From: Bacteroidia bacterium
Lineage (GTDB): Bacteria > Bacteroidota > Bacteroidia > UKL13-3
Assembly: GCA_025454975.1 (NCBI GenBank)
Contig: JALONK010000014.1
Location: 1-64,000 of the forward strand
Direction: 5' to 3'
DNA: 64,000 nt
The notes below the pieces were generated by a model that made no database searches, was not told the DNA's origin, and saw nothing but the letters and a program-made list of their open reading frames with translations. The translations under genes were made by a program, and so were the position numbers. This document shows positions 1 to 7,232 of this stretch, piece after piece (the stretch's first letter is position 1; every line of letters starts with the position of its first letter).

Positions 1-106
1 GTTTTCAATAGCGAATATAAGCTCTGTAGGAACAAAATCATCATAGAAATGAAAATACAACGTGTAAATAAATTTGGGTATACGTGTTTGCCATTATTTG
101 TATTTC

Positions 107-171
107 GCTCCTACGGAGCTTATTGGTTATTGGTTATTTTATTTTTTATTATGATGTTGCCCCTATGGGGC
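107..171. repeat. REP-like hairpin pair in unit 1
   Basis: Two perfect short hairpins lie close together. GCTCC-TAC-GGAGC is at 107-119 and GCCCC-TAT-GGGGC at 159-171. The first sits just upstream of the relic transposase start codon (minus strand, 92-94), where REP palindromes normally flank RAYT genes. An inverted partner of the first hairpin occurs near the start of the unit (degenerate at 20-32, exact at about 270-284 in unit 2). Confidence 0.7.
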
Positions 172-358
172 TGCATTAATTTACCTTCTACAATTTTTAT
201 TTCTTCTTCGGTTATCTCATAAAGTTGGTTTAACAATTGGTCTACTTGGTTTTCAATAGCGAAAAATATAAGCTCCGTAGGAGAAAAATCATTATAGAAA
301 TGGAAATACAACGTGTAAATAAATTTGGGTATTCGTGTTTGCCATTATTTTGTATTTC

Positions 359-416
359 GCTCCTACGGAGCTTATTGGTTATTGGTTATTTTATTATGAT
401 TTTGCCCCTATGGGGC
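359..416. repeat. REP-like hairpin pair in unit 2
   Basis: The same two hairpins as in unit 1, with identical stems and loops, are at 359-371 (GCTCC-TAC-GGAGC) and 404-416 (GCCCC-TAT-GGGGC). The stems are unchanged although surrounding bases differ between units. That could reflect recent duplication or selection on the hairpins. Confidence 0.7.
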
Positions 417-660
417 TGCATTAATTTACCTTCCACAATTTTTATTTCTTGTTTGGTTATCTAATAAAGTTGGTAAACCAATTGGTCTATTTGGTTTTCA
501 ATAGCGAATATAAGCTCAGTGGGAGAAAAATCATCATTGAAATTAATATGAAACGTGTAAATAAATTTAGCATGAATAACTTTGAATTATTCTTCCTCCC
601 TTTTGAGTAACGTGTATGCAACTTTAGGTGGTAATGATATAACTATGTCTAAGCAAATCA

Positions 661-5036: not shown

Positions 5037-7232
5037 ATGAAACGTGAAACAAACTTGCGATTTGTAAGGAAAGAAATTGAAAAACTTTTTGGCAGCAATA
5101 GAAAAAAAGCATTTAACCACAAACAAGTGGCCGCTGCTTTAGACATTACAAGTACTGAAGGTAAAAACCACATCATCAAAACATTAAAGCTGATGGAAAA
5201 GGATGGGCTTATTGAAGAAATAATGCCCGGAAAATATTTGGCTACCTTTACCTCTCATTTTATTACCGGTAAATTAGAAGTTACCCAACGTGGTTCAGGG
5301 TTTGTAATCCCAAAAGAAGGTGGTGAAGATATTTTTATTGCCACTGAAAATATGGGTGGAGCATTGAATGGCGACGAAGTAAAAGTAAATTTATTCGCCC
5401 GTAAAACCGGTAATCGCGTTGAAGGTGAAATTATTGAAGTGCTTGAACGCAAACGAGATGTGTTTGTTGGTGTTTTGCATACCGGATATAATTTCGCAAT
5501 GGTAGTGCCTGATGATAAGAGATTGAAAATTGATATCCTAATTCCTAATGATCAGTTGAACGGCGCTAGAGCTGGTGAAAAAGTATTAGCTAAAATTACT
5601 GATTGGAATCCGTTGCAGAAAAATCCGTTTGGTGAAATAACACAAGTATTAGGTAAACCCGGCGAGCACCAAACTGAAATGCATGCTATTATTGCTGAGT
5701 ACGGATTTTCTGCTGAATTTCCTGCAGCAGTTGAAACTGAATCGGCAGCAATACCTATACAAATCACTAAAGATGAAATTAAACAACGACGTGATTTCAG
5801 AGCCATTACTACTTTTACCATTGACCCCGAAGATGCAAAGGATTTTGATGATGCTTTATCTATTCAACCCCTCACAGATGGGAACATTGAAGTTGGTGTA
5901 CATATTGCTGATGTGGCTCATTATGTAACTCCGGGAACTATGCTTGATGAAGAAGCATTTAACAGAGGTACTTCTGTTTATTTGGTTGACCGTACCATAC
6001 CTATGTTACCGGAAAAATTATCTAATGGCGTATGTTCATTACGACCCAAAGAAGAGAAATTAACCTTTAGTGTTGTATTTACATTAAATGAAAAAGCAGA
6101 AATAATAAACCATTGGACAGGTAAAACTATTATTTACAGCGACAGACGATTTACCTATGAAGAAGCACAGGAAAGGATAGAAACCGGTGAAGGTGAATTT
6201 GCCAACGAAATCATAACCTTAAACAAACTAGCTTTACAGCTACGTGAAAAAAGATTTAAAAACGGTGCGGTAAATTTTGAAACGGAAGAAGTTAAATTTA
6301 AATTGGATGAAGCTTTTAAACCAATAGGCATTTTTAAGAAAGTACGCAAAGATGCTCATAAACTTATTGAAGAATTTATGTTGTTGGCCAATCGTACTGT
6401 AGCTGAACAAGTGTATAAAATGAAAGCCGATAAACAATCGCCAACTTTTGTGTATCGTGTACATGAGCCGCCTAATGAGGATAAACTGAAAACATTTAAT
6501 TTGTTTGCAGCCAGGTTTGGTTATAGTATTGAAACTTCTTCTCAAAGAAGTATTGCTAAATCATTTAACTCGTTATTAAACGCAGTAGAAGGAAAGCCTG
6601 AACAAAACTTAATCCAAAGTATGGCAGTACGTAGTATGATGAAAGCTTACTACACCACTCAAAAAACAAGTCACTATGGATTAGCTTTTGATTATTACAC
6701 ACATTTCACTTCGCCTATCAGAAGGTATCCTGATTTAATGGTTCATCGTTTGTTGTTTGGCTATTTAAACAAATCTAAATCGCCAGAGGCCGCAGCTTAC
6801 GAAGAAAAATGCAAGCATGCTTCGCAAATGGAAATTCAAGCAGCAGAGGCTGAAAGGGCTAGTGTGAGGTATAAACAGGTAGAATATATCAAAGATTTTA
6901 TTGGTGAAACTTTTACCGGACTCATCAGCGGCGTTACTGAATGGGGTATTTATGTTGAAATAACAGATTATAAATGCGAAGGTATGATTAGATTAGCTTC
7001 GTTAACCGACGATTTTTATGATTATGATGAAACCAACCAATGGATTATTGGTCGCCGCTCGAAAAAAGTTTTTCAATTAGGTGGCGAAATTCAAGTTAAA
7101 GTAAAAGGAGCCGATCTGTTAAAAAGACAAATTGATTTTGAAATTGCCGGAACTTTCGCAGGTAAAGCCAAACCTGTGAAACGTGTTGAGAAAAGTAAAA
7201 AGCCTGAAAAACGCAAAAAACGCAGGAGATAA
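5037..7232 (+). CDS. rnr: Ribonuclease R
   Basis: 731-aa processive 3'-5' exoribonuclease. The domain order is typical: N-terminal winged helix (residues ~10-65), cold-shock OB folds (~75-225), the RNB catalytic domain, an S1 RNA-binding domain (~620-700) and a Lys/Arg-rich tail (KRVEKSKKPEKRKKRRR). The RNB active site shows as DPEDAKDFDDALS (about 262-274), with the Asp cluster that holds two metal ions, and later HFTSPIRRYPDL. It degrades structured RNA, mRNA fragments and defective rRNA. Length is slightly below E. coli RNase R (~810 aa) but normal for Bacteroidota. It stands alone, 68 bp after the thioesterase. Confidence 0.96.
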   Translation: MKRETNLRFVRKEIEKLFGSNRKKAFNHKQVAAALDITSTEGKNHIIKTLKLMEKDGLIEEIMPGKYLATFTSHFITGKLEVTQRGSGFVIPKEGGEDIFIATENMGGALNGDEVKVNLFARKTGNRVEGEIIEVLERKRDVFVGVLHTGYNFAMVVPDDKRLKIDILIPNDQLNGARAGEKVLAKITDWNPLQKNPFGEITQVLGKPGEHQTEMHAIIAEYGFSAEFPAAVETESAAIPIQITKDEIKQRRDFRAITTFTIDPEDAKDFDDALSIQPLTDGNIEVGVHIADVAHYVTPGTMLDEEAFNRGTSVYLVDRTIPMLPEKLSNGVCSLRPKEEKLTFSVVFTLNEKAEIINHWTGKTIIYSDRRFTYEEAQERIETGEGEFANEIITLNKLALQLREKRFKNGAVNFETEEVKFKLDEAFKPIGIFKKVRKDAHKLIEEFMLLANRTVAEQVYKMKADKQSPTFVYRVHEPPNEDKLKTFNLFAARFGYSIETSSQRSIAKSFNSLLNAVEGKPEQNLIQSMAVRSMMKAYYTTQKTSHYGLAFDYYTHFTSPIRRYPDLMVHRLLFGYLNKSKSPEAAAYEEKCKHASQMEIQAAEAERASVRYKQVEYIKDFIGETFTGLISGVTEWGIYVEITDYKCEGMIRLASLTDDFYDYDETNQWIIGRRSKKVFQLGGEIQVKVKGADLLKRQIDFEIAGTFAGKAKPVKRVEKSKKPEKRKKRRR

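What the first reader, a model, noticed from the sequence alone, without database searches (positions are those of the whole stretch)
1..569. Tandem array of internally deleted RAYT/IS200-like elements with conserved REP hairpins
A ~247-bp unit repeats 2.3 times. Each complete unit carries the first 14 codons of a Y1 (IS200-like) transposase, a deletion, and a piece resembling its C-terminus. Two hairpins of unchanged sequence (GCTCC-TAC-GGAGC and GCCCC-TAT-GGGGC) sit beside this. This looks like a non-autonomous, MITE-like descendant of a RAYT element that has spread by tandem duplication. The hairpins are identical between units while the flanking sequence differs, hinting at selection or recent copying.
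Basis: partly seen in the sequence, partly recalled or inferred. Interest (0 to 1): 0.7.

Follow-up and report, generated by a model that had tools for sequence, protein, structure and literature searches.

The report
Tandem array of gutted transposase units
At the edge of this contig lies a tandem array of stripped-down copies of a small bacterial transposase element, each unit joining its DNA hairpins and the first 14 or so codons of the transposase to the tail end of a restriction-modification gene; the same kind of unit recurs in other bacteria, so it appears to be a little-described variant of the known REP/RAYT repeats.

Summary
The array is real (window 1-569, period about 245, 2.3 copies) and continues at the end of a second contig, C68:62-701. 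Synteny in two congeners shows the two contigs adjoin. C68:1-44 encodes the last codons of a Y1 transposase, so an intact copy probably lies in the assembly gap.

The 'C-terminus piece' is not transposase: it is the last ~25 codons of an Eco57I-type restriction-modification (R-M) gene. A third, variable hairpin was missed. In this genome the unit occurs at one locus only: a local tandem array, not a dispersed MITE.

Elsewhere the pieces recur: undeleted in a congener, as an independent stub array in a Saprospiraceae MAG (L221), and as solo units without a Y1 gene nearby (L327, L309, L310). In a scan not selected for truncation, 9 of 12 truncated Y1 starts end 39-63 nt into the gene. Y1 genes of at least four clades carry R-M ends beside them, always on the same strand. 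These Y1 proteins fit subclass 1.2, reported to lack REPs; here hairpins are 20-fold enriched beside them.

The parts
1..568 (-). Tandem array of internally deleted Y1 (RAYT-like) units; period about 245 bp; coding direction of all pieces is the minus strand; runs off the contig start and continues on contig C68:62-701
   Evidence: TRF; own-genome blast; C68 sequence; synteny
183..257 (-). Orphan 3' end of an Eco57I-type R-M gene (ENQVDQLLNQLYEITEEEIKIVEG), unit 1
   Evidence: full genes ending the same way in L081/L083/L160, Pfam Eco57I
428..502 (-). Orphan 3' end of an Eco57I-type R-M gene, unit 2 (one in-frame TAG)
159..171 (.). Hairpin REP2 GCCCCTATGGGGC, unit 1
   Evidence: sequence; alignment
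404..416 (.). Hairpin REP2 GCCCCTATGGGGC, unit 2
   Evidence: sequence; alignment
107..119 (.). Hairpin REP1 GCTCCTACGGAGC, unit 1
359..371 (.). Hairpin REP1 GCTCCTACGGAGC, unit 2
51..94 (-). Y1 transposase 5' stub (MANTYTQIYLHVVF), unit 1
304..345 (-). Y1 transposase 5' stub (MANTNTQIYLHVVF), unit 2
551..569 (-). Remnant of a third Y1 5' stub at the array's outer edge (AAATTTATTTACACGTTT)
   Evidence: sequence, (family D1)
21..33 (.). Third hairpin (REP1', degenerate: GTTCCTACAGAGC on the minus strand), corresponding to a hairpin downstream of the full Y1 gene in G003
272..284 (.). Third hairpin REP1' (TCTCCTACGGAGC on the minus strand)
514..526 (.). Third hairpin REP1' (TCTCCCACTGAGC on the minus strand), stem broken

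Best explanation
A Y1 (HuH) transposase gene of the IS200-related 'subclass 1.2' type, with its hairpins, sat just downstream of an Eco57I-type R-M gene. One copy of the segment [last ~75 nt of the R-M gene - hairpins - Y1] lost the Y1 gene from codon ~15 to beyond its stop, leaving hairpins plus a 5' stub. That internally deleted, non-autonomous unit was then amplified head to tail beside a full-length Y1 copy, which most likely still lies in the assembly gap between contigs C41 and C68; the R-M gene itself is gone. Shown: composition and order of the unit, the shared deletion junction in the G000 units, one locus only in this genome, location between convergent genes, the end of a Y1 gene at C68:1-44, the undeleted arrangement in a congener, an independent array elsewhere, and solo units elsewhere. 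Inferred: that the Y1 protein nicks at the hairpins and mobilises such units in trans, that tandem growth is by unequal recombination or replication slippage between units, and that the array is selfish with no dedicated host function.
For: Array and continuation. Contig adjacency: in G004 and G007 the C41 block (MacB, ABC) and the C68 block (TPM, LemA) are on one contig with three unrelated genes and no hairpins or Y1 between. Undeleted form in congener G003: R-M gene - hairpins - 153-aa Y1 - REP1 - REP1' - orphan R-M end. R-M ends around close Y1 relatives incl. Alkalitalea saponilacus (L160) and L156, L157, L159: 5 of 11 loci with Y1 at least 75% identical, 0 of 69 others, reversed control none below E 0.3. 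Independent stub array with full Y1: L221. Solo units without Y1 in the fetched locus: L327 (hairpins - R-M remnant - hairpins - stub), L309, L310. Stub ends cluster: 9 of 12 truncated Y1 starts end 39-63 nt into the gene. Hairpins 6.0/kb within 350 nt of Y1 against 0.30/kb far away.
Against: No dispersed copies in this genome. The full Y1 in the gap is seen only as 44 nt of its 3' end. No transposition event or excised copy was observed. Units differ by roughly a tenth of their positions, so amplification is not very recent. In G018, L277 and L240 units end at other points, and the Y1-proximal downstream hairpin is missing from the G000 unit, so the unit may not have both ends of a transposable element.
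Confidence: 0.62

Rival explanations
1. Passive wreckage: the R-M - Y1 locus decayed, and ordinary homologous or replication-slippage duplication of the remaining hairpin-rich DNA made the array without any transposase action; the Y1 stub and the R-M end are simply what flanked the hairpins.
For: Single locus in this genome; [quoted passage not shown] PMC3116915); tandem arrays of period over 100 bp flank about a tenth of the Y1 loci here, most without stubs.
Against: Stub ends fall in a narrow range in six genomes and two Y1 clades, and solo units occur away from Y1 and R-M genes (L309, L310, L327), which plain slippage does not predict.
Confidence: 0.27
2. The array serves the host as a bank of bidirectional terminators or mRNA-end hairpins between two convergent genes (TPM gene and ABC-transporter gene), and is kept for that.
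For: Location between convergent 3' ends; terminator-like hits at 107 and 359; REP1 and REP2 stems invariant in four units.
Against: Congeners with the same gene pair lack it; the third hairpin decays; terminator-like hits are only slightly above shuffles (3 against 1.0, sd 1.0).
Confidence: 0.06
3. Assembly artefact: chimeric contig ends produced by a repeat.
For: The array lies exactly at two contig ends.
Against: Units on the two contigs differ (92% identity), synteny supports adjacency, and the same unit order is found in unrelated assemblies (L327, L160).
Confidence: 0.03

Closest known systems
REPtrons / tandem REPIN clusters of RAYT genes (Bertels and Rainey 2011, PMC3116915; Di Nocera 2013, PMC3733652)
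   Same: A Y1 transposase gene flanked by short hairpins; hairpins reiterated in tandem together with flanking DNA; array beside the Y1 gene.
   Different: No canonical GTAG foot on the stems, hairpins not dispersed in this genome, and the repeated flank contains the start of the Y1 gene and the end of an R-M gene.
TnpA-Y1 subclass 1.2 (Quentin et al. 2018, PMC6006769)
   Same: Y motif Y---Q--HH in 117 of 121 relatives, about 150 aa, low copy number, Bacteroidetes.
   Different: [quoted passage not shown] here 72 of 80 loci have three or more GC-rich hairpins within 350 nt.
MITE-type internal deletion derivatives of IS200/IS605 elements (own knowledge)
   Same: Flanks kept, most of the transposase gene lost; solo copies without the gene in other genomes.
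   Different: Keeps 13-20 codons of the gene; in this genome only a tandem array; ends not defined experimentally.
Mobile R-M gene complexes (IS-linked R-M movement, PMC3031569, title and abstract only)
   Same: R-M genes linked to a transposase gene.
   Different: Here a ~75-nt copy of the R-M gene's own 3' end lies on the far side of the Y1 gene; movement of the R-M gene is not shown.

Membership tests
RAYT / REPtron | Y1 transposase domain (Y1_Tnp, PF01797) in the associated gene | tested here: met
   Pfam E 1.8e-30 for the G003 relative; in G000 itself only the 5' stubs and the last codons are assembled
RAYT / REPtron | NCBIfam REP-associated tyrosine transposase model above its cut-off | tested here: not met
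   36.8 bits against cut-off 80; the IS200/IS605 model passes (78.9 against 55)
RAYT / REPtron | Hairpins clustered beside the Y1 gene | tested here: met
   6.0/kb near against 0.30/kb far and 0.12/kb shuffled, in relatives
RAYT / REPtron | Stem with 5' GT[AG]G foot | tested here: not met
   GTA(G) lies in the loop of REP1 (GCTCC-GTA-GGAGC on the minus strand), not at the foot; against the definition in PMC6006769
RAYT / REPtron | Hairpin dispersed in many intergenic copies | tested here: not met
   In G000 only at this locus; 1-14 exact copies in 12 of 57 relatives
TnpA-Y1 subclass 1.2 | Y---Q--HH motif, short protein, low copy | tested here: met
   Motif counts; 153 aa; tested on relatives, not on the G000 gene, which is unassembled
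MITE-like non-autonomous derivative | Shares flanks with an autonomous element, lacks most of the transposase | tested here: met
   Unit pieces match both flanks of the full Y1 in G003; that the full element is autonomous is not shown
MITE-like non-autonomous derivative | Dispersed copies at unrelated sites | tested here: not met
   Not in G000; met in other genomes by L309, L310, L327
MITE-like non-autonomous derivative | Mobilised in trans by the cognate transposase | not testable with these tools
   needs an excision or binding assay

The most novel reading that the evidence does not exclude
Subclass 1.2 Y1 transposases have their own non-autonomous elements, bounded on one side 40-60 nt inside the Y1 gene, and in several Y1 clades these elements have taken up the 3' end of Eco57I-type R-M genes as a working end, so that inserting at or recombining with an R-M gene leaves its reading frame intact and lets R-M genes, Y1 genes and other cargo be exchanged at a shared landing site.
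Probability: 0.17. Interest if true: 0.78.

Novelty: new variant of a known kind. Interest (0 to 1): 0.5.

Why it matters
Subclass 1.2 Y1 proteins are described as orphans with neither IS ends nor REPs. The hairpins, stub units and solo units found here give them candidate DNA partners that can be tested in vitro. The repeated pairing with R-M gene ends, in at least four Y1 clades and always on the same strand, suggests a link between this transposase group and the turnover of R-M genes that I did not find described in the papers searched.

Tried and rejected
Plasmid collection: no match. Rfam: nothing above chance. Y1_Tnp search of the own assembly: none; explained by the contig gap. The idea that hairpins evolve more slowly than spacers: P=0.049 for two hairpins, lost when the third is included. 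The idea that the C-terminal piece is transposase: rejected, it is R-M. The idea that the R-M end is a trait of one Y1 clade only: rejected, the tree forces at least four changes (several R-M-end-positive rows were picked because they had it, so the count shows independence, not frequency; the tree is the quick one). The contrast 5 of 11 against 0 of 69 concerns one scan ordered by similarity to the query. A sigma-70-like site spanning the deletion junction (319-291) is not above the shuffled number. One paper query failed for a short term and one script for unequal row lengths (repeated).

Full report
Observation. Tandem Repeats Finder gives one array at window 1-568, period 245, 2.3 copies. 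All its coding pieces read on the minus strand. In that direction a unit is: the last ~25 codons of an R-M gene, hairpin REP2, hairpin REP1, the first 14 codons of a Y1 transposase, a deletion, a third hairpin (REP1'), then the next R-M end.

The C-terminal piece. The peptide ENQxDQLxxQLYEITEEEIKIVEG matches the C-terminus of long open frames (500-1,300 aa) in many Bacteroidota, of which the one in congener G002 carries the Eco57I methylase domain. The Y1 proteins end instead in ...YNEKYLFEWIE.

Own genome. The unit occurs only at C41:1-569 and C68:62-701, and REP1 nowhere else even with one mismatch. C68:1-44 translates as ...CYDEKYLFEWIE-stop, the end of a Y1 gene, followed by REP1 and REP1' as downstream of the full Y1 of congener G003. 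No complete Y1 gene is in the 83 contigs. In congeners G004 and G007 the genes next to the array on C41 (MacB, ABC ATPase) and on C68 (two TPM-type genes, LemA) are neighbours on one contig, with three unrelated genes and no hairpins or Y1 between them. So the two contigs adjoin, the array lies between convergent genes, and a Y1 gene very probably sits in the gap. The last step is inference.

The undeleted form. In G003 (JACFNJ010000166.1) the order is R-M gene - hairpins - 153-aa Y1 - REP1 - REP1' - orphan R-M end. A scan of GTDB genomes with this Y1 returned 80 loci. A DNA profile of the R-M end hit at E below 1e-6 in five of the eleven loci with Y1 at least 75% identical (L152, L156, L157, L159, L160) and in none of the other 69; on reversed sequence nothing was below E 0.3. 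L160 (Alkalitalea saponilacus) has an R-M gene followed by three orphan ends, a full Y1, a Y1 3' fragment and an ATPase gene.

Independent arrays and solo units. L221 (a Saprospiraceae MAG) has five Y1 5' stubs in an array of 275-281 bp units upstream of a full Y1, with the same REP1 and without the R-M end. G018 repeats [R-M end - hairpin - Y1] with the second copy cut 50 nt into the Y1, in a different Y1 clade. To look at truncation without picking truncated copies, I searched 395 genomes with the first 75 nt of each of two Y1 types and followed each hit downstream. Most are full length. Of twelve truncated ones, nine end at about 39-63 nt (G018, G092 twice, G324 twice, G200, G000 twice, G212) and three at 255-281 nt. 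Several of these share a genome, so they are six independent genomes at most. Three lie in fetched loci with no Y1 gene: L309, L310 and L327. L327 has the window's order: hairpins, a decayed R-M end, two REP2-type hairpins, stub.

R-M ends and Y1 genes. Twelve Y1 loci have an R-M end within 1 kb, all on the same strand as the Y1; in eight of them R-M ends lie on both sides of the Y1 (L152, L156, L159, L160, L053/G018, L267, L270, L277). They fall in four separate parts of the Y1 tree. Six of the twelve were fetched because they had an orphan R-M end, so this shows recurrence, not frequency.

Y1 class. The Y---Q--HH motif is present in 117 of 121 relatives, the signature of subclass 1.2 in PMC6006769, for which that paper reports no REPs. 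Perfect GC-rich hairpins are 6.0 per kb within 350 nt of these genes, 0.30 per kb beyond 1.5 kb and 0.12 per kb in shuffled flanks; 72 of 80 loci have at least three. Tandem reiteration of REPs with flanking DNA is already described for other RAYTs, so the array as such is a known kind of thing; the class of Y1, the stub and the R-M end are what is new.

Selection on hairpins. Between four units, 0 of 20 stem columns of REP1 and REP2 vary against 32 of 218 other columns (P=0.049); adding REP1' gives 3 of 30 (P=0.36). The claim is not supported.

Verdict. Mobilisation by the Y1 protein is inferred, not shown.

Noticed in passing
L083:5772-6638 (G002), L130:4955-5916 (G076), L160:2454-5468, L276:3167-4149: Orphan copies of the R-M gene's last ~25 codons also flank genes other than Y1 (a 224-aa membrane-like protein, a Bro-N gene, an ATPase, a 270-aa gene), as if the R-M 3' end were a general insertion or exchange point.
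   Followed up: partly
L290 (G324:C3) and L309 (G324:C4), just after the Y1 stub: Both stubs end at the same base and are followed by another hairpin repeat, GTGGTTGGTG...CACCAACCAC, with different loops; a second repeat family may use or mark this boundary.
   Followed up: no
L281:3505-4074 (G097): What looks like an IS200/REP-type protein of another kind (RRSIRLQGYDYSSAGAYF...; no Pfam hit at 0.001) starts right after an orphan R-M end.
   Followed up: no
L050, L051, L058, L059, L070, L153, L159, L213, L216, L221, L226, L230: Tandem arrays with period over 100 bp sit beside about a tenth of the Y1 genes examined.
   Followed up: partly
window 291-319, minus strand: A near-consensus sigma-70-like site (TTTACA-17-TATAAT) spans the deletion junction of unit 2; not above the shuffled expectation for the region.
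   Followed up: no
L131:9330-9610 (G069), L240:1500-1870 (G324): R-M gene ends followed by hairpins and a Y1 5' stub but no Y1 gene: the Y1 has been lost beyond codon 13-20.
   Followed up: partly
L133 around 5322-5400 (G021): The conserved N-terminus of the same R-M family (LKPRKALNKSFLKVKPNR...) is joined almost directly to its C-terminal end, an internally deleted R-M remnant.
   Followed up: no
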